Shown: one piece after another, positions 2,941 through 47,095 of the stretch
Layout of the letters: every line of letters begins with the position of its first letter
How positions within the stretch are numbered: position 1 is the first letter of the stretch
NCBI GenBank assembly: GCA_019828595.1
Contig: JAHQRK010000002.1
Coordinates: 3,100,001-3,164,000, forward strand
Reading direction: 5' to 3'
Length of the DNA stretch: 64,000 bases
Source of the DNA: Aphanomyces cochlioides
Lineage: Eukaryota > Oomycota > Saprolegniomycetes > Saprolegniales > Verrucalvaceae
Program-made: the position numbers and the translations under genes
Notes under the pieces: generated by a model
The model's database searches: none
What the model was told of the DNA's origin: nothing
What the model saw: only the letters and a program-made list of their open reading frames with translations

Positions 2941-3261
2941 TCGATTGTTTGTGTCCCAAAATGCATTTCGCTTTGTTTCCCTGTCCCCCTTGCGTCCAAC
3001 ATGTTATAGTCTCCTCACTTCCACTGCTGTTTGACGGCTCTCGTCGTCAATATTGTCATTCGCCCTCATTCAATCATCATGGCCATGGAATTCCTTCGGC
3101 TTGATTTGACGGTCAGGCTGTCAGCATTGTCGTGGCTGACAGAAGCCCCCCACAGCAAACTCCAGCGCTTCTATCAACTTTGATGAAAGCTATCGAAGTG
3201 TTCTGCGAAGGTTTTTCATCATTTGTCGATCCCTTTCCCACATTTGAGGCTCGCTATCAAG

Positions 3262-4563
3262 ATGATGCGCACGTTTATGAGTCATCCCTCGCTGAGTGCC
3301 GACAGGAGCGGCGAGTACGAGGAAAAATCCGCCGAGTGGTTTGAGCTTTTCCTCGACTTGATCATGGTCGCGGCATGTTCAAGCATCTCTGAAAAACTCC
3401 GAGACGACCTGTCGTTCCAAGGCTTTTTGTATTTTTCGCTCCTCGCCACGCTCTTCACCATGACATGGATGCTCTACACGAGCTTCCACGCACGATTCAA
3501 TGAGAAATCTCTGCTCCATTACCTCTTCCTCTACATTTGGCTCGTTGGTCTTGGCGGCATGGTCCTTGCTGGAAAGCCTGGCCCAACGTTCACGTTTGGC
3601 CTCCTCCTCGTTCGCATCGCGCAATTGTTTATGCGTGCAACGATGTACATCATGCTCCCTCGAACCCGCCACAAGATTTGCGTCCACATCTTGGTCGGCC
3701 TCGTCAGCGTTGCTACCTTGTACTTGTCGCTCTACTTGCCATCGTCGTGGACAATCACGTGTTACTTGATCGCCATCGTCGTTGAAGCAGTCGGTCCACT
3801 TGCGATTCCGCCGTGGGTGCGATGGTACAGAGCGACGTACTTTGAACGGATTCCCATGAACATTGATCACTACAAAGAGCGCATGGGCAGCCTCGTCATG
3901 TTAACGCTAGGCGAAGCCATCCTGAGCGCGATCATTGATTTCAAAGACCCAAGTCTATTGACTGTCCGCTATTTCATCATGATGCAGCTCGCTCTCCTCG
4001 TACTCTTTTCGATGGCGATGTTTTACTTTGCGATGCAGCCATCGAGGGAGTTTCACGCCCTGCGCCGATCTCTTGCGCTCGGCACTGCCTTCACCTACCT
4101 TCATATTGTGCTCTTCCCAGCACTGCTAGCCATGGGTGTGAGCCTCAAGTTTATCACCAACTCCGTATTGAAGAATGCGTCGCTGGATTCAAATCATGTT
4201 GCTTGGCTCTTTGGGTCGATTTCAGCGTCGATGTTCATCATGCTCCTGATCCGTCTGACTCACTTTGGAGGGCGAAGACCCGCCCCATCGGACCCGGATC
4301 ATATGAAGCGCATTACGAACGCCAATGTTTGGTGGACCCTCGTCGGGTTTGCGCCCTTGGTTCCGATTGTCTGTGCGTGGTTGCTACACAAATATTCAGG
4401 CGACTCGATCAACCCGATCACTGCACTCGTCCTTGCTGCTGGTTTCAACTTGGTCTTTACAATTGTTGAAACACTTATCATGAGTCTACTCGTGGACAGC
4501 GAACCTCGAGTAAGTGAAAACGAAAGCGCCAGTCTACTCGACGAAATACCCGACTACTCATGA
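3262..4563 (+). CDS. LtrA-family multi-pass membrane protein, copy 2
   Basis: This is the tandem paralogue of the preceding gene. An upstream in-frame ATG exists at 3223, but the ATG at 3262 (MMRTFMSHPSLSA) aligns exactly with the first residues of copy 1 (MLRSVWSQPSLSA), so 3262 is preferred, giving 433 residues. It has the same acidic/aromatic signature (EYEEKSAEWFELFLDLIMV), the same loop motif (NIDHYKERMGSLVMLTLGEA) and similar helix spacing. The tails differ: this one ends in SENESASLLDEIPDYS, an acidic sequence with dileucine-type and tyrosine motifs that could sort it to a different membrane (inference). The 321-base gap 2941-3261 between the copies shows nothing else. Confidence 0.83.
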   Translation: MMRTFMSHPSLSADRSGEYEEKSAEWFELFLDLIMVAACSSISEKLRDDLSFQGFLYFSLLATLFTMTWMLYTSFHARFNEKSLLHYLFLYIWLVGLGGMVLAGKPGPTFTFGLLLVRIAQLFMRATMYIMLPRTRHKICVHILVGLVSVATLYLSLYLPSSWTITCYLIAIVVEAVGPLAIPPWVRWYRATYFERIPMNIDHYKERMGSLVMLTLGEAILSAIIDFKDPSLLTVRYFIMMQLALLVLFSMAMFYFAMQPSREFHALRRSLALGTAFTYLHIVLFPALLAMGVSLKFITNSVLKNASLDSNHVAWLFGSISASMFIMLLIRLTHFGGRRPAPSDPDHMKRITNANVWWTLVGFAPLVPIVCAWLLHKYSGDSINPITALVLAAGFNLVFTIVETLIMSLLVDSEPRVSENESASLLDEIPDYS

Positions 4564-4915: not shown

Positions 4916-5881
4916 ATGATGTCGGTCGGCAACTTGACCAACTTGGGTCTGGTCGACACGACAGCCAAGGCGTCCGTCCTGATCGTTGGAGATGGCAACT
5001 TCTCCTACACGTGTGCCTTCGTACGGCATATCGTTGCTCAAGATGACACGGTGCTCCAGCGTATTCACATCGTCGCGACGTCGTTGGACACATACGACGA
5101 GCTTGTCTCCATGTATCCTGGAGCTGCAGTGCATGTACAAGAGCTCGAGTCACACAACGTGCGTGTCCTGCATGGCGTCAACGCGACAAAGCTTGAAATG
5201 CACAAGGACGCTATTCAAGTCGAGCGCGTTGACCGGATTGTATTCAACTTTCCTCACTATGCCGAAGGCGGCAACAAGCGCAACAAGATCAACAAACACA
5301 GACAGCTCATTAGCCAGTTTTTCCAAAGCGCCAAGTCAGTTCTAGCTCACGATGGTCAAGTTTGGGTCACGCTCTGTGCTGGTCAAGGCGGCACGCCCGA
5401 AGAAACGATCGTCCGTCCTGTTGGCGACACTTGGCAAGTCGCTCAATGCGCCGCCTCTGCTGGGCTCATCCTCATGCATGTACATGCTGCTCCCACCGAT
5501 GCACTCTCCAAACTCGGATACAACAGTGTTGGCCATCGGCTGCAGGAAAAAGCATTTCGAACCCAAGAATGCCTCACGCATGTTTTCTGCCTGGAAGCGC
5601 TTGGACTGGAGGCATACCATGCGCTCTCATGGTCACGGGACATTAGCTTTTGGATAGACGATCAATTCATGGAAGACAAGCTCATGGACGTGCTCGAGTC
5701 GGTGTATGGACCCAACGTGACCATCAAATTCGACAAGATCGACGAATACACGAGCGACGACGGACGACACGCACGCGGCTATCGACTCCAACTATCGTCC
5801 AAGACCATGGCTCTCTCCAAGGAATACGTGAACGCCAAGACTGATGAAGTTGTCGACGTCTTGGATAACCACGCGTGGTAA
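4916..5881 (+). CDS. DUF2431 (BMT5-like) rRNA methyltransferase domain fused to FDX-ACB domain, copy 1
   Basis: This intronless protein of 321 residues has an N-terminal DUF2431 Rossmann-type methyltransferase domain. The SAM-binding motif is VGDGNFSYT at residues 24-32, followed by ATSLDTYDEL and FNFPHYAEGGNKRNKINKHR. Yeast Bmt5, which methylates uridine N3 in 25S rRNA, has this domain. The last roughly 85 residues begin WSRDISFWI and contain KIDEYTSDDGRHARGYRLQL. They match the ferredoxin-fold anticodon-binding (FDX-ACB) domain found at the end of phenylalanyl-tRNA synthetases and in vertebrate FDXACB1, which has the same two-domain order. The role is therefore probably RNA uridine methylation, with the exact target unknown. 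A diverged paralogue lies at 45974-47095. The start is one of two consecutive ATGs. Confidence 0.85.
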   Translation: MMSVGNLTNLGLVDTTAKASVLIVGDGNFSYTCAFVRHIVAQDDTVLQRIHIVATSLDTYDELVSMYPGAAVHVQELESHNVRVLHGVNATKLEMHKDAIQVERVDRIVFNFPHYAEGGNKRNKINKHRQLISQFFQSAKSVLAHDGQVWVTLCAGQGGTPEETIVRPVGDTWQVAQCAASAGLILMHVHAAPTDALSKLGYNSVGHRLQEKAFRTQECLTHVFCLEALGLEAYHALSWSRDISFWIDDQFMEDKLMDVLESVYGPNVTIKFDKIDEYTSDDGRHARGYRLQLSSKTMALSKEYVNAKTDEVVDVLDNHAW

Positions 5882-13746: not shown

Positions 13747-13893
13747 GATGAAGCAAATCAAACAAGTTGTGAGATTATACCTAAATATCCGACTATCAGG
13801 TGCTATCGCACATGCCAGAGTGTCTTCTGTTGTATCTTGCGGTCTCTCATGGTAGTTGACTTGTTTCCGCAGCAAGCAAATTCAATGTTCCTT

Positions 13894-13962
13894 GGTCGCG
13901 ACTGGAATAGAACCAGTTTCTCAGGGTAACATGCCATGCGCTCTACGATGAGCTACACGATC
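13894..13962 (-). pseudogene. degenerate tRNA-like unit A
   Basis: This is the first of three tandem units on the minus strand. It keeps the A-box-like TAGCTC and a T-arm, but has a shortened D-loop, a mismatched anticodon stem (CATGG against CCCTG), A at position 33 and TTCTATT in the T-loop. Probably a tRNA pseudogene. Confidence 0.5.
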
Positions 13963-14129
13963 TACTTTGTGTCTTGTGTGTCGTATATATTGCTCATACT
14001 GATCTTCATCAAGGGATTGAAGCCAAGTCGCACATGCTAACTCTTCGTCTTCTTTTCATCCTTGTACGTCGATTGTGCAAGCCAAACGGTTGTCTGAAAT
14101 GCTTGAGAGTTCGTAAATCCAACATAATG

Positions 14130-14200
14130 TGATCGAGACTGGAATCGAACCAGTTTCTCAGGGTAACAATCCCTGTGCTTTGCCAATGAGCTACACGATC
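14130..14200 (-). tRNA. tRNA-like gene, anticodon reads TGT (Thr) if functional
   Basis: Read on the minus strand it folds as a cloverleaf: acceptor GATCGTG/CTCGATC (6 of 7 pairs), D-arm starting GCTC, anticodon stem CAGGG/CCCTG around the loop ATTGTTA, T-arm ACTGG-TTCGATT-CCAGT, discriminator A. The A box (TAGCTCATTGG) and B box (GGTTCGATTCC) are near consensus. Position 37 is T, unusual because nearly all tRNAs carry a purine there, and the D-stem has one mismatch. No clean T4 terminator follows. It may be a tRNA pseudogene or a tRNA-derived repeat. Confidence 0.45.
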
Positions 14201-14361
14201 AGGTTTGTGTCTTGCGCGCTGAATATATTGGTCATATTGGTGGCACCAAAGGGTTGAAGCCAAGTCGCAGGTGTTAACGCTAAGTCTTGTTCACAATACT
14301 GCTTGCTGATTGTGCAAGGTGGTTGGTTATCTTGAATGTATGAGAGTTCGAAAACACACCA

Positions 14362-14432
14362 TGATCTCGACTGGAATCGAACCAGTTTCTCAGGGCAATG
14401 AGCCCTGCGCTCTACCAATGAGCTACACGATC
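14362..14432 (-). tRNA. tRNA-like gene, anticodon reads CAT (Met) if functional
   Basis: This is the best preserved of the three. Minus-strand cloverleaf: acceptor GATCGTG/CGAGATC (one mismatch, one G-T), D-arm GCTC-ATTGGTA-GAGC, anticodon stem CAGGG/CCCTG with loop CTCATTG, T-arm ACTGG-TTCGATT-CCAGT. Both internal promoter boxes match consensus, and four T residues follow the 3' end on this strand within about 12 bases, a minimal Pol III terminator. As in unit B, position 37 is T. The shared backbone with a different anticodon loop shows that the units are recent duplicates. Confidence 0.5.
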
Positions 14433-25024: not shown

Positions 25025-28000
25025 TCAACAGCAAACAGCAAGAAGTTGTCCAATGCCAAGAGCTGTGGAGCAGTAGGTTCCAGTGGCAGTCAGAGTGTAT
25101 GGAACTGATGTTCTTCCTGGAGCGCAGCCTGTAGATACATGGCAGACATTGTTAACGATGTCCCACGATGTCTCGCCAGGTTGAACAACATACCCAACGC
25201 ATGTAGACGGCAAGGGCAAGAACGATGTGAATGCAGTGTTGTTGATGGCACTCAAGATCAATTGCATGATTGCTGTGAGGACGTTAGTTGGAGTTGACGT
25301 CGGTTTTGGTGCAGGAATAATCGTCGTAGTGGTCGCGGCTACCATCACTGGTGTGGTCGTTGGAGCTGTTGTTGTCGATTGTGCTTTGGTCGTTGGAGCT
25401 GATGTTGTCGTTGGTGTTTTGGTTGTAATCGAGATCGTAGACGTTGTTGCAGGTGCTACAGGTGTCGTGAGAGGCGGTGTTGTTGACGGTGTTTGAATTG
25501 TCGTTGATGCTGGAGACATCGAGGTTGCTTGTGTTGCTGGCTGAAGTGTCGTGACTGATACTGTGGAGATTGAGGGAATCGCAGTTGTTGTGTTAACAAA
25601 CAAAGTTGAGGGCACCGTTGTCACGGGTAATGACGTCGTTGGAGAAGTGGTCGATGTCGACGGGACAGAAGCAGTCACGTTCTGCTGCTGTGTTGTTGTC
25701 GGCGCGATGGGAGCTATGGAGGTTGAAAGTGGCGGAGGTAAGTATATCGATGGGGGGTACTTGCACTGCCACATATTTGCCACATATGTGCATGTTGAAT
25801 CTGCTGGGGCAAAACATGAGAGCGTTGTTGCATTCCATGAAGGAAGTGAAGAGTTGCAAGCCGCCGTAGGAGTAGAACGAGAGTTTTTTGTTGGACAAAG
25901 CGTGCCTTGCGGCGCGCATAAACCAGAACCACCGCATGGAACTGTATCAGATGAAGCCGACACGGAATAGTTGGTATCACCAAACACAGGGACGATGTAT
26001 GTGGCAAGTGTGGTTTGTGATGTCGTGGACGGAACTGTGGCGCATCCCTGAGATGGGAATACGCATCCCCATGTGCCACCGGATTGATTTGTTCCTTGGA
26101 CAAGTGAGCAGATCGCATCTTCAGGTGCAACACAAGATTGCGTCTTAGAATTCCAAGAGGGAATACCAGGGTTACAGCCAGCAAACGGAACATCGCCAGC
26201 TCGGGGACAACGCGATCCAACTGGAGCACAACCTTGCCCGCCACACACTTCAGACGGCAGTACAGAGAAAAGTCCATAGGTTGCATCCTTGCAAACACTA
26301 ACAAAAGCCAAAGGTGCCAGCGTTCCAACCAGCGACGAGCTTGGAGACAAAGTAACATTAGAAGCAAGGGTGGTCAGGGGTGCGGGAGTCACTGTGGTCG
26401 TTGTAGGAGCCTTCGTCGTAGAGGGAGACGTAGTGGTGTTGGAGGCGACGGTGGTCTGAGGTGTCATCGTGGTGGTAGGAGTTGGCATGTTTGTGGTGGG
26501 ACTTGCAGTCGTTGTGATGTTGGATGGCACGGACGTGGTTGGAGCCACGGTGGTGTTCGTGGTTGTATTATTGGAGCCGATGGTGGTGGTGGGAGGTGGT
26601 GTGTTGGTGGTTGGACTTGTAGTCGTTGTGGTGTTGGAGGGGACGGTGGTGGTGGGAGGTGGTGTGCTGGTGGGACTCGTAGTCGTTGTGGTGTTGGAGG
26701 GGACGGACGTAGTTGGCGACACGGTGGTGTTTGTGCCGGAGCTATTGGAAGCGACGGTGGTCTGAGGTGCAGGTGTCACTGTGGTCGTTGTAGGAGCCTT
26801 CGTCGTAGAGGGAGACGTAGTGGTGTTGGAGGCGACGGTGGTCTGAGGTGTCATCGTGGTGGTAGGAGTTGGCGTGTTTGTGGTGGGACTTGCAGTCGTT
26901 GTGATGTTGGATGGCACGGACGTGGTTGGAGCCACGGTGGTGTTCGTGGCTGTATTATTGGAGCCGATGGTGGTGGTGGGAGGTGGTGTGTTGGTGGTTG
27001 GACTTGTAGTCGTTGTGGTGTTGGAGGGGACGGTGGTAGTGGGAGGTGGTGTGTTGGTGGTTGGACTTGTAGTCGTTGTGGTGTTGGAGGGGACGGACGT
27101 AGTTGGCGACACGGTGGTGTTTGTGCCGGAGCTATTGGAAGCGACGGTGGTCTGAGGTGCAGGTGTCACTGTGGTCGTTGTAGGAGCCTTCGTCGTAGAG
27201 GGAGACGTAGTGGTGTTGGAGGCGACGGTGGTCTGAGGTGTCATCGTGGTGGTAGGAGTTGGCGTGTTTGTGGTGGGACTTGCAGTCGTTGTGATGTTGG
27301 ATGGCACGGACGTGGTTGGAGCCACGGTGGTGTTCGTGGCTGTATTATTGGAGCCGATGGTGGTGGTGGGAGGTGGTGTGTTGGTGGTTGGACTTGTAGT
27401 CGTTGTGGTGTTGGAGGGGACGGTGGTAGCGGGAGGTGGTGTGTTGGTGGTTGGACTTGTAGTTGTTGTGGTGTTGGAGGGGACGGTGGTAGTGGGAGGT
27501 GGTGTGCTGGTGGGACTCGTAGTCGTTGTGATGTTGGATGGCACGGACGTAGTTGGCGACACGGTGGTGTTTGTGCCGGAGCTATTTGAAGCGACGGTGG
27601 TCTGAGGTGCAGGTGTCACTGTGGTCGTTGTAGGAGCCTTCGTCGTAGAGGGAGACGTAGTGGTGTTGGAGGCGACGGTGGTCTGAGGTGTCATCGTGGT
27701 GGTAGGAGTTGGCGTGTTTGTGGTGGGACTTGCAGTCGTTGTGATGTTGGATGGCACGGACGTGGTTGGAGCCACGGTGGTGTTCGTGGCTGTATTATTG
27801 GAGCCGATGGTGGTGGTGGGAGGTGGTGTGTTGGTGGTTGGACTTGTAGTCGTTGTGGTGTTGGAGGGGACGGTGGTAGCGGGAGGTGGTGTGTTGGTGG
27901 TTGGACTTGTAGTTGTTGTGGTGTTGGAGGGGACGGTGGTAGTGGGAGGTGGTGTGCTGGTGGGACTCGTAGTCGTTGTGATGTTGGATGGCACGGACGT

Positions 28001-31000
28001 AGTTGGCGACACGGTGGTGTTTGTGCCGGAGCTATTGGAAGCGACGGTGGTCTGAGGTGCAGGTGTCACTGTGGTCGTTGTAGGAGCCTTCGTCGTAGAG
28101 GGAGACGTAGTGGTGTTGGAGGCGACGGTGGTCTGAGGTGTCATCGTGGTGGTAGGAGTTGGCGTGTTTGTGGTGGGACTTGCAGTCGTTGTGATGTTGG
28201 ATGGCACGGACGTGGTTGGAGCCACGGTGGTGTTCGTGGCTGTATTATTGGAGCCGATGGTGGTGGTAGGAGGTGGTGTGTTGGTGGTTGGACTTGTAGT
28301 TGTTGTGGTGTTGGAGGGGACGGTGGTGGTGGGAGGTGGTGTGTTGGTGGTTGGACTTGTAGTCGTTGTGGTGTTGGAGGGGACGGACGTAGTTGGCGAC
28401 ACGGTGGTGTTTGTGCCGGAGCTATTTGAAGCGACGGTGGTCTGAGGTGCAGGTGTCACTGTGGTCGTTGTAGGAGCCTTCGTCGTAGAGGGAGACGTAG
28501 TGGTGTTGGAGGCGACGGTGGTCTGAGGTGTCATCGTGGTGGTAGGAGTTGGCGTGTTTGTGGTGGGACTTGCAGTCGTTGTGATGTTGGATGGCACGGA
28601 CGTGGTTGGAGCCACGGTGGTGTTCGTGGCTGTATTATTGGAGCCGATGGTGGTGGTGGGAGGTGGTGTGTTGGTGGTTGGACTTGTAGTCGTTGTGGTG
28701 TTGGAGGGGACGGTGGTAGTGGGAGGTGGTGTGTTGGTGGTTGGACTTGTAGTTGTTGTGGTGTTGGAGGGGACGGTGGTAGTGGGAGGTGGTGTGCTGG
28801 TGGGACTCGTAGTCGTTGTGATGTTGGAGGGGACGGACGTAGTTGGCGACACGGTGGTGTTTGTGCCGGAGCTATTTGAAGCGACGGTGGTCTGAGGTGC
28901 AGGTGTCACTGTGGTCGTTGTAGGAGCCTTCGTCGTAGAGGGAGACGTAGTGGTGTTGGAGGCGACGGTGGTCTGAGGTGTCATCGTGGTGGTAGGAGTT
29001 GGCGTGTTTGTGGTGGGACTTGCAGTCGTTGTGATGTTGGATGGCACGGACGTGGTTGGAGCCACGGTGGTGTTCGTGGCTGTATTATTGGAGCCGATGG
29101 TGGTGGTGGGAGGTGGTGTGTTGGTGGTTGGACTTGTAGTCGTTGTGGTGTTGGAGGGGACGGTGGTAGCGGGAGGTGGTGTGTTGGTGGTTGAACTTGT
29201 AGTTGTTGTGGTGTTGGAGGGGACGGTGGTAGTGGGAGGTGGTGTGCTGGTGGGACTCGTAGTCGTTGTGATGTTGGATGGCACGGACGTAGTTGGCGAC
29301 ACGGTGGTGTTTGTGCCGGAGCTATTGGAAGCGACGGTGGTCTGAGGTGCAGGTGTCACTGTGGTCGTTGTAGGAGCCTTCGTCGTAGAGGGAGACGTAG
29401 TGGTGTTGGAGGCGACGGTGGTCTGAGGTGTCATCGTGGTGGTAGGAGTTGGCGTGTTTGTGGTGGGACTTGCAGTCGTTGTGATGTTGGATGGCACGGA
29501 CGTGGTTGGAGCCACGGTGGTGTTCGTGGCTGTATTATTGGAGCCGATGGTGGTGGTGGGAGGTGGTGTGTTGGTGGTTGGACTTGTAGTCGTTGTGGTG
29601 TTGGAGGGGACGGTGGTGGTGGGAGGTGGTGTGTTGGTGGTTGGACTTGTAGTTGTTGTGGTGTTGGAGGGGACGGTGGTAGTGGGAGGTGGTGTGCTGG
29701 TGGGACTCGTAGTCGTTGTGATGTTGGATGGCACGGACGTAGTTGGCGACACGGTGGTGTTTGTGCCGGAGCTATTGGAAGCGACGGTGGTCTGAGGTGC
29801 AGGTGTCACTGTGGTCGTTGTAGGAGCCTTCGTCGTAGAGGGAGACGTAGTGGTGTTGGAGGCGACGGTGGTCTGAGGTGTCATCGTGGTGGTAGGAGTT
29901 GGCGTGTTTGTGGTGGGACTTGCAGTCGTTGTGATGTTGGATGGCACGGACGTGGTTGGAGCCACGGTGGTGTTCGTGGCTGTATTATTGGAGCCGATGG
30001 TGGTGGTAGGAGGTGGTGTGTTGGTGGTTGGACTTGTAGTCGTTGTGGTGTTGGAGGGGACGGTGGTGGTGGGAGGTGGTGTGCTGGTGGGACTCGTAGT
30101 CGTTGTGGTGTTGGAGGGGACGGACGTAGTTGGCGACACGGTGGTGTTTGTGCCGGAGCTATTTGAAGCGACGGTGGTCTGAGGTGCAGGTGTCACTGTG
30201 GTCGTTGTAGGAGCCTTCGTCGTAGAGGGAGACGTAGTGGTGTTGGAGGCGACGGTGGTCTGAGGTGTCATCGTGGTGGTAGGAGTTGGCGTGTTTGTGG
30301 TGGGACTTGCAGTCGTTGTGATGTTGGATGGCACGGACGTGGTTGGAGCCACGGTGGTGTTCGTGGCTGTATTATTGGAGCCGATGGTGGTGGTGGGAGG
30401 TGGTGTGTTGGTGGTTGGACTTGTAGTCGTTGTGGTGTTGGAGGGGACGGTGGTAGCGGGAGGGGTGTGTTGGTGGTTGGACTTGTAGTTGTTGTGGTGT
30501 TGGAGGGGACGGTGGTAGTGGGAGGTGGTGTGCTGGTGGGACTCGTAGTCGTTGTGATGTTGGATGGCACGGACGTAGTTGGCGACACGGTGGTGTTTGT
30601 GCCGGAGCTATTGGAAGCGACGGTGGTCTGAGGTGCAGGTGTCACTGTGGTCGTTGTAGGAGCCTTCGTCGTAGAGGGAGACGTAGTGGTGTTGGAGGCG
30701 ACGGTGGTCTGAGGTGTCATCGTGGTGGTAGGAGTTGGCGTGTTTGTGGTGGGACTTGCAGTCGTTGTGATGTTGGATGGCACGGACGTGGTTGGAGCCA
30801 CGGTGGTGTTCGTGGTTGTATTATTGGAGCCGATGGTGGTGGTAGGAGGTGGTGTGTTGGTGGTTGGACTTGTAGTCGTTGTGGTGTTGGAGGGGACGGT
30901 GGTGGTGGGAGGTGGTGTGCTGGTGGGACTCGTAGTCGTTGTGGTGTTGGAGGGGACGGACGTAGTTGGCGACACGGTGGTGTTTGTGCCGGAGCTATTG

Positions 31001-34000
31001 GAAGCGACGGTGGTCTGAGGTGCAGGTGTCACTGTGGTCGTTGTAGGAGCCTTCGTCGTAGAGGGAGACGTAGTGGTGTTGGAGGCGACGGTGGTCTGAG
31101 GTGTCATCGTGGTGGTAGGAGTTGGCGTGTTTGTGGTGGGACTTGCAGTCGTTGTGATGTTGGATGGCACGGACGTGGTTGGAGCCACGGTGGTGTTCGT
31201 GGCTGTATTATTGGAGCCGATGGTGGTGGTGGGAGGTGGTGTGTTGGTGGTTGGACTTGTAGTCGTTGTGGTGTTGGAGGGGACGGTGGTAGCGGGAGGT
31301 GGTGTGTTGGTGGTTGGACTTGTAGTTGTTGTGGTGTTGGAGGGGACGGTGGTAGTGGGAGGTGGTGTGCTGGTGGGACTCGTTGTCGTTGTGATGTTGG
31401 AGGGGACGGACGTAGTTGGCGACACGGTGGTGTTTGTGCCGGAGCTATTGGAAGCGACGGTGGTCTGAGGTGCAGGTGTCACTGTGGTCGTTGTAGGAGC
31501 CTTCGTCGTAGAGGGAGACGTAGTGGTGTTGGAGGCGACGGTGGTCTGAGGTGTCATCGTGGTGGTAGGAGTTGGCGTGTTTGTGGTGGGACTTGCAGTC
31601 GTTGTGATGTTGGATGGCACGGACGTGGTTGGAGCCACGGTGGTGTTCGTGGCTGTATTATTGGAGCCGATGGTGGTGGTGGGAGGTGGTGTGTTGGTGG
31701 TTGGACTTGTAGTCGTTGTGGTGTTGGAGGGGACGGTGGTAGTGGGAGGTGGTGTGTTGGTGGTTGGACTTGTAGTTGTTGTGGTGTTGGAGGGGACGGT
31801 GGTAGTGGGAGGTGGTGTGTTGGTGGTTGGACTTGTAGTCGTTGTGATGTTGGAGGGGACGGACGTAGTTGGCGAAACGGTGGTGTTTGTGCCGGAGCTA
31901 TTGGAAGCGACGGTGGTCTGAGGTGCAGGTGTCACTGTGGTCGTTGTAGGAGCCTTCGTCGTAGAGGGAGACGTAGTGGTGTTGGAGGCGACGGTGGTCT
32001 GAGGTGTCATCGTGGTGGTAGGAGTTGGCGTGTTTGTGGTGGGACTTGCAGTCGTTGTGATGTTGGATGGCACGGACGTGGTTGGAGCCACGGTGGTGTT
32101 CGTGGCTGTATTATTGGAGCCGATGGTGGTGGTGGGAGGTGGTGTGTTGGTGGTTGGACTTGTATTCGTTGTGGTGTTGGAGGGGACGGTGGTAGCGGGA
32201 GGTGGTGTGCTGGTGGGACTCGTAGTCGTTGTGGTGTTGGAGGGGACGGTGGTAGTGGGAGGTGGTGTGTTGGTGGTTGGACTTGTAGTCGTTGTGATGT
32301 TGGAGGGGACGGACGTAGTTGGCGAAACGGTGGTGTTTGTGCCGGAGCTATTGGAAGCGACGGTGGTCTGAGGTGCAGGTGTCACTGTGGTCGTTGTAGG
32401 AGCCTTCGTCGTAGAGGGAGACGTAGTGGTGTTGGAGGCGACGGTGGTCTGAGGTGTCATCGTGGTGGTAGGAGTTGGCGTGTTTGTGGTGGGACTTGCA
32501 GTCGTTGTGATGTTGGATGGCACGGACGTGGTTGGAGCCACGGTGGTGTTCGTGGCTGTATTATTGGAGCCGATGGTGGTGGTGGGAGGTGGTGTGTTGG
32601 TGGTTGGACTTGTATTCGTTGTGGTGTTGGAGGGGACGGTGGTAGCGGGAGGTGGTGTGTTGGTGGTTGGACTTGTAGTTGTTGTGGTGTTGGAGGGGAC
32701 GGTGGTAGTGGGAGGTGGTGTGCTGGTGGGACTCGTAGTCGTTGTGATGTTGGATGGCACGGACGTAGTTGGCGACACGGTGGTGTTTGTGCCGGAGCTA
32801 TTGGAAGCGACGGTGGTCTGAGGTGCAGGTGTCACTGTGGTCGTTGTAGGAGCCTTCGTCGTAGAGGGAGACGTAGTGGTGTTGGAGGCGACGGTGGTCT
32901 GAGGTGTCATCGTGGTGGTAGGAGTTGGCGTGTTTGTGGTGGGACTTGCAGTCGTTGTGATGTTGGATGGCACGGACGTGGTTGGAGCCACGGTGGTGTT
33001 CGTGGCTGTATTATTGGAGCCGATGGTGGTGGTGGGAGGTGGTGTGTTGGTGGTTGGACTTGTAGTCGTTGTGGTGTTGGAGGGGACGGTGGTAGTGGGA
33101 GGTGGTGTGTTGGTGGTTGGACTTGTAGTTGTTGTGGTGTTGGAGGGGACGGTGGTAGTGGGAGGTGGTGTGTTGGTGGTTGGACTTGTAGTCGTTGTGG
33201 TGTTGGATGGCACGGACGTAGTTGGCGACACGGTGGTGTTTGTGCCGGAGCTATTTGAAGCGACGGTGGTCCGAGGTGCAGGTGTCACTGTGGCCGTTGT
33301 AGGAGCCTTCGTCGTAGAGGGAGACGTAGTGGTGTTGGAGGCGACGGTGGTCTGAGGTGTCATCGTGGTGGTAGGAGTTGGCGTGTTTGTGGTGGGACTT
33401 GCAGTCGTTGTGATGTTGGATGGCACGGACGTGGTTGGAGCCACGGTGGTGTTCGTGGCTGTATTATTGGAGCCGATGGTGGTGGTGGGAGGTGGTGTGT
33501 TGGTGGTTGGACTTGTAGTCGTTGTGGTGTTGGAGGGGACGGTGGTAGTGGGAGGTGGTGTGTTGGTGGTTGGACTTGTAGTTGTTGTGGTGTTGGAGGG
33601 GACGGTGGTAGTGGGAGGTGGTGTGTTGGTGGTTGGACTTGTAGTCGTTGTGGTGTTGGAGGGGACGGACGTAGTTGGCGACACGGTGGTGTTTGTGCCG
33701 GAGCTATTTGAAGCGACGGTGGTCCGAGGTGCAGGTGTCACTGTGGCCGTTGTAGGAGCCTTCGTCGTAGAGGGAGACGTAGTGGTGTTGGAGGCGACGG
33801 TGGTCTGAGGTGTCATCGTGGTGGTAGGAGTTGGCGTGTTTGTGGTGGGACTTGCAGTCGTTGTGATGTTGGATGGCACGGACGTGGTTGGAGCCACGGT
33901 GGTGTTCGTGGCTGTATTATTGGAGCCGATGGTGGTGGTGGGAGGTGGTGTGTTGGTGGTTGGACTTGTATTCGTTGTGGTGTTGGAGGGGACGGTGGTA

Positions 34001-37000
34001 GTGGGAGGTGGTGTGTTTGTGGTTGGACTTGTAGTTGTTGTGGTGTTGGACGGGACGGTGGTAGTGGGAGGTGGTGTGCTGGTGGGACTCGTAGTCGTTG
34101 TGATGTTGGATGGCACGGACGTAGTTGGCGACACGGTGGTGTTTGTGCCGGAGCTATTTGAAGCGACGGTGGTCTGAGGTGCAGGTGTCACTGTGGTCGT
34201 TGTAGGAGCCTTCGTCGTAGAGGGAGACGTAGTGGTGTTGGAGGCGACGGTGGTCTGAGGTGTCATCGTGGTGGTAGGAGTTGGCGTGTTTGTGGTGGGA
34301 CTTGCAGTCGTTGTGATGTTGGATGGCACGGACGTGGTTGGAGCCACGGTGGTGTTCGTGGCTGTATTATTGGAGCCGATGGTGGTGGTGGGAGGTGGTG
34401 TGTTGGTGGTTGGACTTGTAGTCGTTGTGGTGTTGGAGGGGACGGTGGTAGCGGGAGGTGGTGTGTTGGTGGTTGGACTTGTAGTTGTTGTGGTGTTGGA
34501 GGGGACGGTGGTAGTGGGAGGTGGTGTGCTGGTGGGACTCGTAGTCGTTGTGATGTTGGATGGCACGGACGTAGTTGGCGACACGGTGGTGTTTGTGCCG
34601 GAGCTATTGGAAGCGACGGTGGTCTGAGGTGCAGGTGTCACTGTGGTCGTTGTAGGAGCCTTCGTCGTAGAGGGAGACGTAGTGGTGTTGGAGGCGACGG
34701 TGGTCTGAGGTGTCATCGTGGTGGTAGGAGTTGGCGTGTTTGTGGTGGGACTTGCAGTCGTTGTGATGTTGGATGGCACGGACGTGGTTGGAGCCACGGT
34801 GGTGTTCGTGGTTGTATTATTGGAGCCGATGGTGGTGGTAGGAGGTGGTGTGTTGGTGGTTGGACTTGTAGTCGTTGTGGTGTTGGAGGGGACGGTGGTA
34901 GTGGGAGGTGGTGTGTTGGTGGTTGGACTTGTAGTTGTTGTGGTGTTGGAGGGGACGGTGGTAGTGGGAGGTGGTGTGCTGGTGGGACTCGTAGTCGTTG
35001 TGATGTTGGAGGGGACGGACGTAGTTGGCGACACGGTGGTGTTTGTGCCGGAGCTATTGGAAGCGACGGTGGTCTGAGGTGCAGGTGTCACTGTGGTCGT
35101 TGTAGGAGCCTTCGTCGTAGAGGGAGACGTAGTGGTGTTGGAGGCGACGGTGGTCTGAGGTGTCATCGTGGTGGTAGGAGTTGGCGTGTTTGTGGTGGGA
35201 CTTGCAGTCGTTGTGATGTTGGATGGCACGGACGTGGTTGGAGCCACGGTGGTGTTCGTGGCTGTATTATTGGAGCCGATGGTGGTGGTGGGAGGTGGTG
35301 TGTTGGTGGTTGGACTTGTAGTCGTTGTGGTGTTGGAGGGGACGGTGGTGGTGGGAGGTGGTGTGTTGGTGGTTGGACTTGTAGTCGTTGTGGTGTTGGA
35401 GGGGACGGACGTAGTTGGCGACACGGTGGTGTTTGTGCCGGAGCTATTTGAAGCGACGGTGGTCTGAGGTGCAGGTGTCACTGTGGTCGTTGTAGGAGCC
35501 TTCGTCGTAGAGGGAGACGTAGTGGTGTTGGAGGCGACGGTGGTCTGAGGTATCATCGTGGTGGTAGGAGTTGGCGTGTTTGTGGTGGGACTTGCAGTCG
35601 TTGTGATGTTGGATGGCACGGACGTGGTTGGAGCCACGGTGGTGTTGGTGGCGTTAGTGCCATTGGTGTTGGAGGCGACGGAGGTCTGAGGTGTGGGTGT
35701 CGTGGTGGGAGCCGGCGTGTTGATGGTGGGGATTGTCGTCGTGTTGGATGGCACGGACGTGGTTGGAGCCACGGTGGTGTTGGTGGCGTTAGTGCCATTG
35801 GTGTTGGAGGCGACGGAGGTCTGAGGTGTGGGTGTCGTGGTGGGAGCCGGCGTGTTGATGGTGGGGATTGTCGTCGTGTTGGATGGCACGGACGTGGTTG
35901 GAGCCACGGTGGTGTTGGTGGCGTTAGTGCCATTGGTGTTGGAGGCGACGGAGGTCTGAGGTGTGGGTGTCGTGGTGGGAGCCGGCGTGTTGATGGTGGG
36001 GATTGTCGTCGTGTTGGATGGCACGGACGTGGTTGGAGCCACGGTGGTGTTGGTGGCGTTAGTGCCATTGGTGTTGGAGGCGACGGAGGTCTGAGGTGTG
36101 GGTGTCGTGGTGGGAGCCGGCGTGTTGATGGTGGGGATTGTCGTCGTGTTGGATGGCACGGACGTGGTTGGAGCCACGGTGGTGTTGGTGGCGTTAGTGC
36201 CATTGGTGTTGGAGGCGACGGAGGTCTGAGGTGTGGGTGTCGTGGTGGGAGCCGGCGTGTTGATGGTGGGGATTGTCGTCGTGTTGGATGGCACGGACGT
36301 GGTTGGAGCCACGGTGGTGTTGGTGGCGTTAGTGCCATTGGTGTTGGAGGCGACGGAGGTCTGAGGTGTGGGTGTCGTGGTGGGAGCCGGCGTGTTGATG
36401 GTGGGGATTGTCGTCGTGTTGGATGGCACGGACGTGGTTGGAGCCACGGTGGTGTGGTGGTGGCGTTAGTGCCATTGGTGTTGGAGGCGACGGAGGTCTG
36501 AGGTGTGGGTGTCGTGGTGGGAGCCGGCGTGTTGATGGTGGGGATTGTCGTCGTGTTGGATGGCACGGACGTGGTTGGAGCCACGGTGGTGTTGGTGGCG
36601 TTAGTGCCATTGGTGTTGGAGGCGACGGAGGTCTGAGGTGTGGGTGTCGTGGTGGGAGCCGGCGTGTTGATGGTGGGGATTGTCGTCGTGTTGGATGGCA
36701 CGGACGTGGTTGGAGCCACGGTGGTGTTGGTGGCGTTAGTGCCATTGGTGTTGGAGGCGACGGAGGTCTGAGGTGTGGGTGTCGTGGTGGGAGCCGGCGT
36801 GTTGATGGTGGGGATTGTCGTCGTGTTGGATGGCACGGACGTGGTTGGAGCCACGGTGGTGTTGGTGGCGTTAGTGCCATTGGTGTTGGAGGCGACGGAG
36901 GTCTGAGGTGTGGGTGTCGTGGTGGGAGCCGGCGTGTTGATGGTGGGGATTGTCGTCGTGTTGGATGGCACGGACGTGGTTGGAGCCACGGTGGTGTTGG

Positions 37001-40000
37001 TGGCGTTAGTGCCATTGGTGTTGGAGGCGACGGAGGTCTGAGGTGTGGGTGTCGTGGTGGGAGCCGGCGTGTTGATGGTGGGGATTGTCGTCGTGTTGGA
37101 TGGCACGGACGTGGTTGGAGCCACGGTGGTGTTGGTGGCGTTAGTGCCATTGGTGTTGGAGGCGACGGAGGTCTGAGGTGTGGGTGTCGTGGTGGGAGCC
37201 GGCGTGTTGATGGTGGGGATTGTCGTCGTGTTGGATGGCACGGACGTGGTTGGAGCCACGGTGGTGTTGGTGGCGTTAGTGCCATTGGTGTTGGAGGCGA
37301 CGGAGGTCTGAGGTGTGGGTGTCGTGGTGGGAGCCGGCGTGTTGATGGTGGGGATTGTCGTCGTGTTGGATGGCACGGACGTGGTTGGAGCCACGGTGGT
37401 GTTGGTGGCGTTAGTGCCATTGGTGTTGGAGGCGACGGAGGTCTGAGGTGTGGGTGTCGTGGTGGGAGCCGGCGTGTTGATGGTGGGGATTGTCGTCGTG
37501 TTGGATGGCACGGACGTGGTTGGAGCCACGGTGGTGTTGGTGGCGTTAGTGCCATTGGTGTTGGAGGCGACGGAGGTCTGAGGTGTGGGTGTCGTGGTGG
37601 GAGCCGGCGTGTTGATGGTGGGGATTGTCGTCGTGTTGGATGGCACGGACGTGGTTGGAGCCACGGTGGTGTTGGTGGCGTTAGTGCCATTGGTGTTGGA
37701 GGCGACGGAGGTCTGAGGTGTGGGTGTCGTGGTGGGAGCCGGCGTGTTGATGGTGGGGATTGTCGTCGTGTTGGATGGCACGGACGTGGTTGGAGCCACG
37801 GTGGTGTTGGTGGCGTTAGTGCCATTGGTGTTGGAGGCGACGGAGGTCTGAGGTGTGGGTGTCGTGGTGGGAGCCGGCGTGTTGATGGTGGGGATTGTCG
37901 TCGTGTTGGATGGCACGGACGTGGTTGGAGCCACGGTGGTGTTGGTGGCGTTAGTGCCATTGGTGTTGGAGGCGACGGAGGTCTGAGGTGTGGGTGTCGT
38001 GGTGGGAGCCGGCGTGTTGATGGTGGGGATTGTCGTCGTGTTGGATGGCACGGACGTGGTTGGAGCCACGGTGGTGTTGGTGGCGTTAGTGCCATTGGTG
38101 TTGGAGGCGACGGAGGTCTGAGGTGTGGGTGTCGTGGTGGGAGCCGGCGTGTTGATGGTGGGGATTGTCGTCGTGTTGGATGGCACGGACGTGGTTGGAG
38201 CCACGGTGGTGTTGGTGGCGTTAGTGCCATTGGTGTTGGAGGCGACGGAGGTCTGAGGTGTGGGTGTCGTGGTGGGAGCCGGCGTGTTGATGGTGGGGAT
38301 TGTCGTCGTGTTGGATGGCACGGACGTGGTTGGAGCCACGGTGGTGTTGGTGGCGTTAGTGCCATTGGTGTTGGAGGCGACGGAGGTCTGAGGTGTGGGT
38401 GTCGTGGTGGGAGCCGGCGTGTTGATGGTGGGGATTGTCGTCGTGTTGGATGGCACGGACGTGGTTGGAGCCACGGTGGTGTTGGTGGCGTTAGTGCCAT
38501 TGGTGTTGGAGGCGACGGAGGTCTGAGGTGTGGGTGTCGTGGTGGGAGCCGGCGTGTTGATGGTGGGGATTGTCGTCGTGTTGGATGGCACGGACGTGGT
38601 TGGAGCCACGGTGGTGTTGGTGGCGTTAGTGCCATTGGTGTTGGAGGCGACGGAGGTCTGAGGTGTGGGTGTCGTGGTGGGAGCCGGCGTGTTGATGGTG
38701 GGGATTGTCGTCGTGTTGGATGGCACGGACGTGGTTGGAGCCACGGTGGTGTTGGTGGCGTTAGTGCCATTGGTGTTGGAGGCGACGGAGGTCTGAGGTG
38801 TGGGTGTCGTGGTGGGAGCCGGCGTGTTGATGGTGGGGATTGTCGTCGTGTTGGATGGCACGGACGTGGTTGGAGCCACGGTGGTGTTGGTGGCGTTAGT
38901 GCCATTGGTGTTGGAGGCGACGGAGGTCTGAGGTGTGGGTGTCGTGGTGGGAGCCGGCGTGTTGATGGTGGGGATTGTCGTCGTGTTGGATGGCACGGAC
39001 GTGGTTGGAGCCACGGTGGTGTTGGTGGCGTTAGTGCCATTGGTGTTGGAGGCGACGGAGGTCTGAGGTGTGGGTGTCGTGGTGGGAGCCGGCGTGTTGA
39101 TGGTGGGGATTGTCGTCGTGTTGGATGGCACGGACGTGGTTGGAGCCACGGTGGTGTTGGTGGCGTTAGTGCCATTGGTGTTGGAGGCGACGGAGGTCTG
39201 AGGTGTGGGTGTCGTGGTGGGAGCCGGCGTGTTGATGGTGGGGATTGTCGTCGTGTTGGATGGCACGGACGTGGTTGGAGCCACGGTGGTGTTGGTGGCG
39301 TTAGTGCCATTGGTGTTGGAGGCGACGGAGGTCTGAGGTGTGGGTGTCGTGGTGGGAGCCGGCGTGTTGATGGTGGGGATTGTCGTCGTGTTGGATGGCA
39401 CGGACGTGGTTGGAGCCACGGTGGTGTTGGTGGCGTTAGTGCCATTGGTGTTGGAGGCGACGGAGGTCTGAGGTGTGGGTGTCGTGGTGGGAGCCGGCGT
39501 GTTGATGGTGGGGATTGTCGTCGTGTTGGATGGCACGGACGTGGTTGGAGCCACGGTGGTGTTGGTGGCGTTAGTGCCATTGGTGTTGGAGGCGACGGAG
39601 GTCTGAGGTGTGGGTGTCGTGGTGGGAGCCGGCGTGTTGATGGTGGGGATTGTCGTCGTGTTGGATGGCACGGACGTGGTTGGAGCCACGGTGGTGTTGG
39701 TGGCGTTAGTGCCATTGGTGTTGGAGGCGACGGAGGTCTGAGGTGTGGGTGTCGTGGTGGGAGCCGGCGTGTTGATGGTGGGGATTGTCGTCGTGTTGGA
39801 TGGCACGGACGTGGTTGGAGCCACGGTGGTGTTGGTGGCGTTAGTGCCATTGGTGTTGGAGGCGACGGAGGTCTGAGGTGTGGGTGTCGTGGTGGGAGCC
39901 GGCGTGTTGATGGTGGGGATTGTCGTCGTGTTGGATGACACAGACGTGCTTGGTGCTGTTGTTGATCTAACTATTTCCGTCGTGTTGGATGTTATGGTAT

Positions 40001-40718
40001 CTTCAGTATACTGAGGATTTGTTGCTTGTCTTGGATGGAGATAATTGAGGGGATATTCGCATTGCCAGTTGTTCACTTGCTCAGATGATGAAGTTTGAAT
40101 TGTGCGAAAATTGCATTCTGTGTCCACGGGCAATATGCAAGTTAGTTGAGTTGAATTCCATGAGTGCATGGAGCTGTTGCATGGGCTACTGGGATCGGCT
40201 TTTGAGCCTTTTGTTGGGCAAAGTGTTCCCCGTGGGCGACAAAGGCCCTGGCCAGAGCAAATTTCATTTGGATTGTTTGCTCTCACCGGAAATCTTGTAT
40301 CTCCATCCACTTGAACAATCCACTCGCCGGGGGTTTGAGCAGCTTCAACTGGAATCGCAGAATGGCAGCCTAACGATGGCAACACGCAGCCCCAAGTTCC
40401 GCCCCATTCCATGGTGCCTTCAATCAACGCACAGACTGCGTCTTCCTTCAGAGTGCACGACTGGGACGTGGCATTCCAGGTGGGTAAACTTGAGTTACAG
40501 TCGCCGGTGGGCATGTCGCCAGCCCTAGGACATCGTGTTCCTCGTGGAGCGCAGCCTTGGCCACCACACACATATCCAAATTCTGGAGTCCATCCTTGTA
40601 GTTCATATGTTGAATCGCCGCACAGAGGAACTAGCTCTACTCGCGGAGGGTAACAAATATCTGCAACCAGGAGATAGCACCCGTGCAGAAGCAGCACGAT
40701 CAATGGAAGATAGCGCAT
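25025..40718 (-). CDS. giant secreted mucin-like protein with paired cysteine-rich domains and C-terminal LysM
   Basis: This 15.7-kb minus-strand gene starts at ATG 40718 with a signal peptide (RYLPLIVLLLHGCYLLVA). Two Cys-rich domains follow (CGGQGCAPRGTRCPRAGD... and CSGQGLCRPRGTLCPT...), then about 4,500 residues of Thr/Ser/Pro/Asn repeats. A second pair of the same domains (CGGQGCAPVGSRCPRAGD, CGGSGLCAPQGTLCPT), another Thr-rich stretch and a LysM-like module (CVGYVVQPGETSWDIVNNVC) near the end complete it. Each 45-residue unit carries four N-glycosylation sequons, and O-glycosylation must be extensive. No transmembrane helix or GPI-type tail is seen. The frame changes twice inside the repeats: +2 nt near 36450-36462 and -1 nt near 30461-30466. 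Taken literally the product stops at 35553 (about 1,720 residues). Without those indels it would be about 5,230 residues. A cell-wall or cyst-coat matrix role is inference. Confidence 0.75.
26361..35640 (-). repeat. higher-order tandem repeat, about 22 units of 387-453 bp (array II)
   Basis: Unit starts recur at 26469, 26856, 27246, 27696, 28146, 28536 and onward to 35168 and about 35555, giving steps of 387, 390, 450 or 453 bp (one of 449). The differences are whole modules of 60 or 63 bp, encoding about VPSNTTTTTSPT[TN/S]TPPPTTT and present two or three times per unit. All steps but one are multiples of three; the 449-bp unit (30273-30722) has lost one base. Unit sequences are nearly identical, with scattered substitutions. 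Confidence 0.9.
35641..39940 (-). repeat. 32-copy tandem array of a 135-bp unit (array I)
   Basis: The marker TTAGTGCCAT recurs every 135 bp from 35654 to 39841 (32 copies), with a single 2-base insertion between copies near 36455. The unit encodes 45 residues beginning TVAPTTSVPSNTTTIP. By eye the copies are virtually identical. The segment coding TTVAPTTSVPSN is shared with array II, so both arrays descend from one ancestral unit. Confidence 0.93.
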
Positions 40719-45973: not shown

Positions 45974-47095
45974 ATGCTGCCAATCAAATCTCTCCATCAT
46001 AAAGGCGTTCAAATGCTTCAAGCCATTCGTCGTGGATGGTATCATGCTTCGACGCATCGCTTTTCACTGGTCCGTGGAAAGTGCACGACGCCTCGTGGGT
46101 GTGATCGTGTTCTCTTGGATCTTCCTACAAGTCATATCACGACTGCACCACGAATTTTGATTGTTGGTGACGGTAACTTTTCATACTCGCGAGCCGTCAC
46201 GACAGCACTGCAACGAGCTGGCTTCGAAGCAAAGTTTGTGATCTCGACGTCGCTTGATACGCGAGATGAGCTAGAGAGAATGTACCCTGGCGCATCAGCC
46301 TCTATTGAACACCTTGAGTCCATTGGTGTTCAGGTACATCATGGCATCAATGCCACCACTCTGGCTGCATATGCCCATGTATTTGGAATCGATGCGTTTG
46401 ACCGCATCGTGTTCAACTTTCCCCATTTTGCCGAGGGTGGAAACGTCCGCAACAAGATCAGCAAGCACCGAGAACTCTTGGCTAAATTCTTCGAAAGCTC
46501 TCGATCGGTGCTAGCTCACGATGGACAAGTCTGGCTGTCGCTCTGTGCGGGGCAAGGAGGCACGCCGGCCGACACGATTACCCGAAGTTACGGTGATACT
46601 TGGCAAGTTATAGAATGCGCCGCTGCTGGACAAATGCTCTTGTTGGATGTCAAACCTTTCCCATATTCTGAGTTGGCGGCTTTGGGCTATGGTAGCGTGG
46701 GTTACCGCCTCGAAGAACGTGCTTTCCACTCCGAGAATGGCCTTGTCCACGTATTTGTCCCAGAATCCAAGACTGTGCGCTCTCGCTTCCCTCAAACCTG
46801 GTCCCGCGATGTAAGTCTTTGGCTTGGGCCCAACTTTTCCGTTGGCGCCGTGGAGTCAATCTTTCGAGAGATCATGGGCGATGGCTTCGATTTGAAGCTG
46901 GAAAAACGGGACGAATATCAATGCCCCAAGTCACAGCGTCAATCGTACATGTTCCATGTCGTCTTCACGTCCAACGTGTACAATTTGACGAGGCAGCGAT
47001 TGAACGGCTACATCCAGTCATTTGCAGCCCGTTTGGACCACGATGGCGTCGGTCAAGTGCGAGGTGGTTTCGATGTCAATCGCTCCAACAAATAG
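45974..47095 (+). CDS. DUF2431 (BMT5-like) rRNA methyltransferase domain fused to FDX-ACB domain, copy 2
   Basis: This intronless paralogue of the gene at 4916 has 373 residues. A 60-residue basic, His/Arg-rich N-terminal extension (ending PTSHITTAPR) precedes the SAM motif VGDGNFSYS (64-72), then STSLDTRDELERMYPG, FNFPHFAEGGNVRNKISKHR and SLCAGQGGTP. The C-terminal FDX-ACB domain begins TWSRDVSLWLGPNFSV and contains EKRDEYQCPKSQRQSYMFHVVF, closer to the family consensus than copy 1. The extension could be a mitochondrial presequence, which would make this the organellar form; a start at the internal Met14 is also possible. It converges on the small membrane protein gene, with 48 bases between stops. 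Confidence 0.87.
   Translation: MLPIKSLHHKGVQMLQAIRRGWYHASTHRFSLVRGKCTTPRGCDRVLLDLPTSHITTAPRILIVGDGNFSYSRAVTTALQRAGFEAKFVISTSLDTRDELERMYPGASASIEHLESIGVQVHHGINATTLAAYAHVFGIDAFDRIVFNFPHFAEGGNVRNKISKHRELLAKFFESSRSVLAHDGQVWLSLCAGQGGTPADTITRSYGDTWQVIECAAAGQMLLLDVKPFPYSELAALGYGSVGYRLEERAFHSENGLVHVFVPESKTVRSRFPQTWSRDVSLWLGPNFSVGAVESIFREIMGDGFDLKLEKRDEYQCPKSQRQSYMFHVVFTSNVYNLTRQRLNGYIQSFAARLDHDGVGQVRGGFDVNRSNK

What the first reader, a model, noticed from the sequence alone, without database searches (positions are those of the whole stretch)
25025..40718. Giant mucin built as Cys-pair / repeats / Cys-pair / LysM
Both ends carry the same ordered pair of cysteine-rich domains (CGGQGCAP..GxRCPRAGD then C.G.GLC.P.GTLCPT), which align residue by residue. 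About 13.5 kb of Thr/Ser/Pro/Asn repeats lies between them, and a LysM-like module closes the protein. The mirrored ends suggest fusion or internal duplication of an ancestral Cys-pair plus mucin gene. Full length would be about 5,230 residues with hundreds of glycosylation sites. I know of no described protein with this exact layout. A cyst-coat or wall-anchored matrix protein is the inferred role.
Basis: partly seen in the sequence, partly recalled or inferred. Interest (0 to 1): 0.8.

Follow-up and report, generated by a model that had tools for sequence, protein, structure and literature searches.

The report
Two-ended giant water-mould mucin
A likely Aphanomyces water-mould genome carries a 15.7-kb mucin-like gene whose two ends hold the same pair of cysteine-rich modules and whose tail holds a module also found at the end of a predicted chitinase, so its product would likely be a sugar-coated brush tethered to the cell wall, but as assembled its reading frame is interrupted twice.

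Summary
The layout is real. On the minus strand lie a signal-peptide-like start, a pair of Cys modules, 13.6 kb of Thr/Ser/Pro/Asn repeats, a second Cys pair in the same order (51% identical), a linker and a 6-Cys C-terminal module. The claim of one 5,230-residue frame fails: three open frames in three registers meet inside the repeats, although 50 of 52 measured unit spacings are multiples of three.

The 'pair' is two copies of one 6-Cys module. No Pfam model matched it; it has at least 78 matches in this genome, beside cellulose-binding domains, an alkaline phosphatase and other mucins, and is probably the domain that print calls CAR-like. N-type and C-type pairs occur in other Aphanomyces, so the pair duplication is probably older than those species.

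The tail fails Pfam's LysM model. It belongs to a five-copy family here, one copy ending a GH18 chitinase; its profile's only PDB matches (weak) are chitinase LysM domains.

Best reading: a secreted, heavily glycosylated surface mucin, probably anchored by its tail to wall chitosaccharides; an odd N-terminal cysteine, also in A. stellatus, may link molecules. A new variant of known oomycete CAR/mucin adhesins. Expression and function are untested; the frame breaks may be assembly errors or real.

The parts
25025..40718 (-). whole mucin-like gene as assembled (start codon to stop codon; frame interrupted twice inside the repeats)
40662..40718 (-). signal-peptide-like leader (MRYLPLIVLLLHGCYLLVA); strongest 12-residue hydrophobic stretch of frame A
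   Evidence: Kyte-Doolittle 2.46 at residue 7; no signal-peptide predictor available
40365..40637 (-). N-terminal Cys module 1
40050..40325 (-). N-terminal Cys module 2
35523..39953 (-). array of 135-bp (45-codon) repeats, about 32.8 copies, 99% matches
36441..36578 (-). repeat unit whose length is not a multiple of 3 (137 nt against 135): register changes between frames A and B
26357..35652 (-). array of 387-453-bp repeats; 21 unit spacings measured
30388..30837 (-). repeat unit whose length is not a multiple of 3 (449 nt): register changes between frames B and C
26042..26308 (-). C-terminal Cys module 1
25754..26002 (-). C-terminal Cys module 2
25217..25753 (-). Thr/Ser/Pro linker with a hydrophobic stretch (VLTAIMQLILSAI) before the tail; the stretch is conserved in part in A. 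astaci P0008
25028..25216 (-). 6-Cys C-terminal module, remotely LysM-like; one of five matches in this genome

Best explanation
This gene likely encodes a giant secreted surface mucin of an Aphanomyces water mould, whose Thr/Ser/Pro/Asn repeats would form a glycosylated brush, whose tail would likely hold it to chitosaccharides in the cell wall, and whose odd cysteine at the head may join molecules by disulfides. Shown: the order leader, Cys pair, repeats, Cys pair, linker, 6-Cys tail; all four Cys modules are copies of one type; the repeats (4,438 residues in three frame pieces) have no Cys and no aromatic residues; the head has 17 Cys after the leader here and 17 in the A. stellatus N-terminal fragment, the C-pair 16, the tail 6. 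Inferred: secretion, glycosylation, sugar binding by the tail, disulfide linking, the order of duplications, and that the two frame breaks are assembly or strain-level accidents in an otherwise functional gene. The Cys modules probably act as stable end caps or adhesion modules, a role that print proposes for proteins with CAR-like domains.
For: Coding: codon-position identity of the two pairs 62/66/34%; variable codons among the 11 units of 450 bp: 15 synonymous and 16 non-synonymous in the Thr frame, against 4/27 and 0/30 in the other two registers, with 21 of 41 variable columns at third positions; 50 of 52 unit spacings are multiples of 3. Conservation: N-type pair in A. euteiches (P0004, its first part missing) and A. 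stellatus (P0005); C-type pair in A. stellatus (P0007, P0009) and A. astaci (P0008), the last followed by the same kind of linker and VCC-ending tail. Tree of 25 modules: the six module-2 rows together (100/100), the three N-type module-2 rows together (96/91). Tail: 5 matches in this genome, the query included; one ends a GH18 chitinase (PF00704, E 4.1e-66) and one lies in a ricin-B lectin protein with a GH17 match below Pfam's cut-off; an HMM of the 4 relatives scores the window tail 37.9 bits against at most 7.3 among the 493 of 500 shuffles that were reported; its profile gave 3 PDB hits at E<=10, all chitinase LysM domains, best E 0.093. Ligand plausibility: chitin or chitosaccharides play an essential structural role in A. 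euteiches (passage in PMC3532174). Cysteine counts.
Against: Two frame breaks in the assembled gene; if real, only a product of about 1,720 residues with one Cys pair and no tail would be made. Pfam LysM does not match the tail; profile comparison with this genome's true LysM domains gave only 9.8% probability over 13 columns; A. astaci's copy has lost part of the LysM-like start. The C-type module-2 rows do not form a clade and module-2 identities do not separate N- from C-type (49 against 50%), so the age of the pair duplication rests mainly on module 1, one starred branch and domain order. A. astaci P0008 has a further Cys ahead of its pair. AlphaFold models were poor (mean pLDDT 49.3 and 53.7) and Foldseek found nothing significant. 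No expression or stage data.
Confidence: 0.57

Rival explanations
1. The frame breaks are real: the locus is a decaying or truncated mucin gene that makes only the first part (leader, one Cys pair, about 1,100 residues of Thr-rich repeats and an out-of-frame end), without the tail module.
For: Three open frames in three registers; each register change lies in one repeat unit of odd length.
Against: 50 of 52 unit spacings are multiples of 3; both ends keep their cysteines and protein-like codon-position conservation; no in-frame stop in the three pieces up to the odd units. Long near-identical repeats are where consensus errors are expected (general knowledge).
Confidence: 0.22
2. Two adjacent genes: a secreted N-terminal mucin and a separate C-terminal mucin with the tail, the middle being shared repeats.
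For: Register changes; relatives in the database are separate fragments for the two ends, though four of the five are labelled partial; A. astaci P0008 is annotated as a 465-residue protein with the C-terminal part only.
Against: No leader was seen ahead of the C-terminal pair: the strongest 12-residue hydropathy in frame B is 0.36; in frame C the strong stretches lie just ahead of the Cys pair (residue 1340, nearest Met about 45 residues before it) and before the tail. Repeats run without a gap between the ends.
Confidence: 0.12
3. The tail module is not a sugar-binding module but a disulfide knot used for assembly or sorting, and the mucin is shed rather than wall-anchored.
For: Six cysteines, no Pfam LysM match, divergence of the LysM-like start in A. 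astaci.
Against: Same module at the end of a GH18 chitinase and in a lectin/GH17-like protein; the only PDB profile matches are chitinase LysM domains.
Confidence: 0.25
4. Ordinary CAR-type mucin adhesin: same kind as Phytophthora Car and the A. euteiches CBM1/CAR proteins, its size and two-ended layout being incidental repeat expansion.
For: At least 78 module matches in this genome; CBM1 neighbours as described for Ae_10AL7886; another mucin with a 10,082-codon open frame on C3.
Against: Only the two window places match the pair over its whole length; two other places (C21:397366, C12:3292347) match residues 5-165 and 9-176 of 198 at 34 and 37% identity. A pair at both ends plus the tail was not seen in the other ORFs that I read.
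Confidence: 0.35

Closest known systems
[quoted passage not shown] 2000, not seen; known to me through passages of PMC2654667 and PMC2248709)
   Same: Oomycete surface mucin-like protein with a Cys-conserved region next to repeats; inferred cover and adhesion role
   Different: Car has an N-terminal Cys region and TTYAPTEE octapeptide repeats; here there are paired modules at both ends, 45- and about 130-150-residue repeats and a LysM-like tail.
A. euteiches CBM1 + CAR-like proteins (Ae_10AL7886; PMC2248709, section 12 read)
   Same: Same module type by architecture: paralogues in this genome have CBM1 domains beside one or more copies of the module
   Different: The paralogues read have open frames of about 400-800 residues with short T/S linkers; the window protein has no CBM1 match
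LysM (CBM50) domains of chitinases (PDB 5yz6, 5k2l, 4pxv)
   Same: Similar start (C-x-YT..GD) and end (VGQ...V.C); here too the module ends a GH18 chitinase
   Different: Longer middle, six cysteines, below Pfam's LysM threshold
PPMUCL1/2/3 mucin-like proteins of Phytophthora parasitica biofilm (Larousse et al. 2014, not seen; cited in a passage of PMC10351607)
   Same: Oomycete mucin-like family
   Different: Sequences not available here; not compared

Membership tests
Oomycete CAR/mucin-like adhesins | Secretion signal at the N-terminus | tested here: inconclusive
   Hydrophobic leader by hydropathy only; no signal-peptide predictor
Oomycete CAR/mucin-like adhesins | Long Thr/Ser/Pro-rich tandem repeats | tested here: met
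   62-74% T+S+P in the three repeat pieces; arrays
Oomycete CAR/mucin-like adhesins | Cys-conserved module homologous to the Car N-terminal region | tested here: inconclusive
   Module homologous to those in CBM1 proteins whose architecture resembles the printed CAR-like protein; no Car sequence at hand
Oomycete CAR/mucin-like adhesins | TTYAPTEE-type octapeptide repeat | tested here: not met
   Repeat units are 45 and about 130-150 residues; the peptide was not seen on reading the translations (by eye)
LysM (PF01476/CBM50) | Match to the Pfam LysM model | tested here: not met
   0 families for the tail at E<=10; relative L039 scores 13.1 bits, cut-off 20.9
LysM (PF01476/CBM50) | Remote profile similarity to LysM domains | tested here: inconclusive
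   Only 3 PDB hits at E<=10, all chitinase LysM, best E 0.093; hhalign 9.8% against the genome's own LysM
LysM (PF01476/CBM50) | Beta-alpha-alpha-beta fold | tested here: inconclusive
   Model mean pLDDT 53.7, no significant Foldseek match
LysM (PF01476/CBM50) | Binding to GlcNAc polymers | not testable with these tools
   Needs a binding assay
Gel-forming animal mucins | VWD/C8 and cystine-knot domains (recalled definition) | tested here: not met
   No Pfam family at E<=1 on either end

The most novel reading that the evidence does not exclude
A new architecture of surface polymer: a roughly 5,000-residue mucin brush with matched Cys-module caps at both ends, disulfide-joined head to head by a conserved odd cysteine and pinned to wall chitosaccharides by a fast-diverging LysM-like tail. 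It would be one of a set of giant Aphanomyces mucins, with another of 10,082 codons on contig C3, built from a 6-Cys module that has no Pfam model.
Probability: 0.35. Interest if true: 0.68.

Novelty: new variant of a known kind. Interest (0 to 1): 0.5.

Why it matters
It puts a domain grammar on oomycete surface mucins: one 6-Cys module without a Pfam model is reused at least 78 times in this genome, with cellulose-binding domains, an enzyme and giant repeat arrays, and a LysM-like module is shared by a mucin and a chitinase. If the tail binds chitosaccharides, it suggests how a water mould fastens a mucin coat to its wall, which is directly testable. The relatives that my length-limited searches reached are fragments of 297-783 residues, four of five labelled partial, so the full layout could hardly be seen from them.

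Tried and rejected
One continuous frame: rejected. Two different Cys domains per pair: rejected, all four modules share six invariant cysteines with eight paralogous modules. Homologue search with the C-terminal end of a long query: of 7,964 scored candidates none reached E 0.001, perhaps because low-complexity words crowded out others; repeated on the pair region alone (3 proteins of 919 candidates). The searches admit only proteins of 0.55-1.75 times the query length, so longer or shorter relatives may be missed. First motif scripts printed no match because of too strict a pattern, and read the minus-strand loci on the wrong strand; searches replaced them. PDB by sequence for the C-terminal end: only a phycobilisome linker at E 0.37; for the Cys-module profile nothing at E<=1. 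Pfam on 12 single modules: two families, one member each, E 0.11 (DUF7395) and 0.16 (Carb_bind), taken as chance; NCBIfam: one chance hit. AlphaFold and Foldseek: low-confidence models, no usable match; the intimin LysM at rank 3, E 7.1, is not evidence. Rfam: only tRNAs at gathering threshold. DNA search with two 135-bp repeat units was not scored by the tool, so repeat relatives elsewhere in the genome are unknown. Tree: 25 rows, namely 11 pair modules, 10 of the 31 genome modules extracted and 4 others; P0009, the second copy in P0007 and the cut module 1 of P0004 were left out. Papers: searches (listings), passages and section 12 of PMC2248709; none of what I saw describes this layout; the original papers on Car and PPMUCL were not seen.
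Full report
What the window is. The window is G000:C12:3100001-3164000, from a 76.2-Mb genome in 94 contigs. Its closest protein relatives are Aphanomyces: A. euteiches P0004 at 91-92% identity, with a mucin repeat unit that reads the same by eye. Four A. euteiches assemblies are 52-60 Mb (Table 3 of PMC8780586, passage), so a sister species is likely; the size fits the A. cochlioides assembly as I recall it, which no call confirms.

Anatomy. On the minus strand, an ATG at 40718 starts a hydrophobic leader, then a pair of Cys modules (40637-40050), a 135-bp repeat array (35523-39953), a 387-453-bp repeat array (26357-35652), a second Cys pair (26308-25754), a Thr/Ser/Pro linker and a 6-Cys tail (25216-25028), with the stop at 25025-25027. 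Counted in three frame pieces, the repeats make 4,438 residues with 2,383 Thr/Ser, 312 N-X-S/T sequons, no Cys, no aromatic residue and 24 charged residues.

The frame. Three frames in three registers cover the locus. Measuring distances between anchor words, 50 of 52 unit spacings (31 in the first array, 21 in the second) are multiples of three; one unit in the first array is 137 nt and one in the second is 449 nt. Other evidence says that the Thr reading is the coding one. Between the two Cys pairs, codon positions 1, 2 and 3 agree at 62, 66 and 34% of 185 codons. Among the 11 units of 450 bp, the 31 variable codons are 15 synonymous and 16 not, against 4/27 and 0/30 in the other registers. 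That long frames stay open in the repeats carries no weight by itself, since a 1,176-codon antisense frame is open there too. Whether the two breaks are consensus errors, an allele or decay cannot be told here.

One module, used four times. The four modules share six invariant cysteines with eight paralogous modules. In a tree of 25 modules all six module-2 rows group at 100/100, and the three N-type module-2 rows at 96/91. For module 1, the window N copy is closer to A. stellatus N (63%) than to the window C copy (56%), and the window C copy closer to A. stellatus C (69%) and A. astaci C (67%). Against this, module-2 identities do not separate the types (window N to A. stellatus N 49%, window N to window C 50%), the C-type module-2 rows are not a clade, and the module-1 forks are below the starred level. 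With the order of domains in A. stellatus P0005 (leader-like start, then pair) and A. astaci P0008 (pair, linker, tail), the simplest reading is that one module was duplicated into a pair and the pair was duplicated before these species parted. P0008 has a T/P-rich stretch ahead of its pair, not the window's repeat units, and no leader by eye.

The wider family. The N-terminal piece finds 28 places at E<=0.01 in this genome, the two window pairs included, and a CBM1-type composite module finds 78 at E<=0.001 (both counts are lower bounds), 28 of them in a tandem array at C1:3.73-3.77 Mb. Neighbours include CBM1 domains (PF00734) and an alkaline phosphatase (PF00245), and by eye transmembrane and other T/S-rich proteins. 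Only the two window places match the pair over its whole length; two others match residues 5-165 and 9-176 of 198 at 34 and 37% identity. No Pfam model matched at E<=1 on either end of the protein, and the best match on 12 single modules was E 0.11. Gaulin et al. 2008 (PMC2248709, section 12) described an A. euteiches protein with four cellulose-binding domains at its ends and a centre like the Phytophthora cyst-germination (CAR) proteins; a C21 protein here has three CBM1 stretches and two modules, so the module is probably what print calls CAR-like. I could not compare it with a Car sequence.

The tail. It has five matches in this genome at E<=1, the query included. One ends a GH18 chitinase (PF00704, E 4.1e-66); a copy that is near-identical over the part read lies 6 kb away; one is in a protein with ricin-B lectin and glutaredoxin domains and a GH17 match below Pfam's cut-off; one is in a 345-residue ORF with no Pfam hit. 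An HMM of the four relatives gives the window tail 37.9 bits and A. astaci's 34.1, against maxima of 7.3 and 10.0 among the 493 of 500 shuffles reported for each. A profile of all six rows finds three PDB sequences at E<=10, all chitinase LysM domains, best E 0.093; they look related to one another, so this is one weak observation. Against LysM: no Pfam match for the window tail, 9.8% probability against this genome's own LysM domains, and an uninformative model. I call it LysM-like and probably chitosaccharide-binding, not a LysM member.

Mechanism. The leader would send the protein out; the repeats would be O- and N-glycosylated into a stiff brush; the tail would hold it to wall chitosaccharides, which a passage in PMC3532174 says play an essential structural role in A. 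euteiches. After the leader the head has 17 cysteines here, and the A. stellatus N-terminal fragment has 17, while the window's C-terminal pair has 16 and the tail 6; the spare head cysteine may join molecules. A. astaci P0008 has one more Cys ahead of its 16-Cys pair, so its count is odd too if that stretch is real. [quoted passage not shown]

Verdict. Real layout, its parts conserved in related species; frame claim wrong as stated; domain identity partly wrong; role plausible and testable. New variant of a known kind.

Noticed in passing
G000:C3:1555648-1585893 (L011, L043): A second giant mucin: one open frame of 10,082 codons with T/P-rich repeats and a Cys module at its C-terminal end; only the two ends were read.
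   Followed up: partly
G000:C1:3729948-3772740: Tandem array with 28 of the 78 CAR-like module matches, each 70-71% identical to the query.
   Followed up: no
G000:C12:526111 and 532381 (L027, L028): Two mucin ORFs with identical Cys modules and open frames of 2,080 and 1,612 codons, about 6 kb apart.
   Followed up: partly
L052, L051 (G000:C6:230790 and 224637): GH18 chitinase (L052) with the same 6-Cys LysM-like tail, and a copy near-identical over the part read about 6 kb away.
   Followed up: partly
L039:3605-7750: 1,382-residue ORF combining ricin-B lectin and glutaredoxin domains, a GH17 match below cut-off, the LysM-like module and, by eye, a CBM1-like stretch.
   Followed up: partly
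P0008 (A. astaci H257_18703): UniRef names it 'CBM1 domain-containing protein', but Pfam finds no family in it.
   Followed up: no
P0007 (A. stellatus): The fragment begins and ends with the same Cys-pair sequence around about 430 residues of T/S/P-rich sequence on a 2.4-kb contig: either a repeated pair-mucin unit or a contig-end artefact.
   Followed up: no
window 36408-39938 +: 1,176-codon open frame antisense to the 135-bp array, a by-product of the repeat; not evidence of a gene.
   Followed up: no
window 13893-14432: Three tRNA genes (two Thr-TGT, one Met-CAT) within a 237-bp tandem repeat.
   Followed up: no
window 1624-2940 and 3223-4563: Two adjacent ORFs, both with Pfam LtrA domains.
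   Followed up: no
window 4916-5881 and 45974-47095: Two BMT5-like methyltransferase ORFs 40 kb apart, one on each side of the mucin gene.
   Followed up: no
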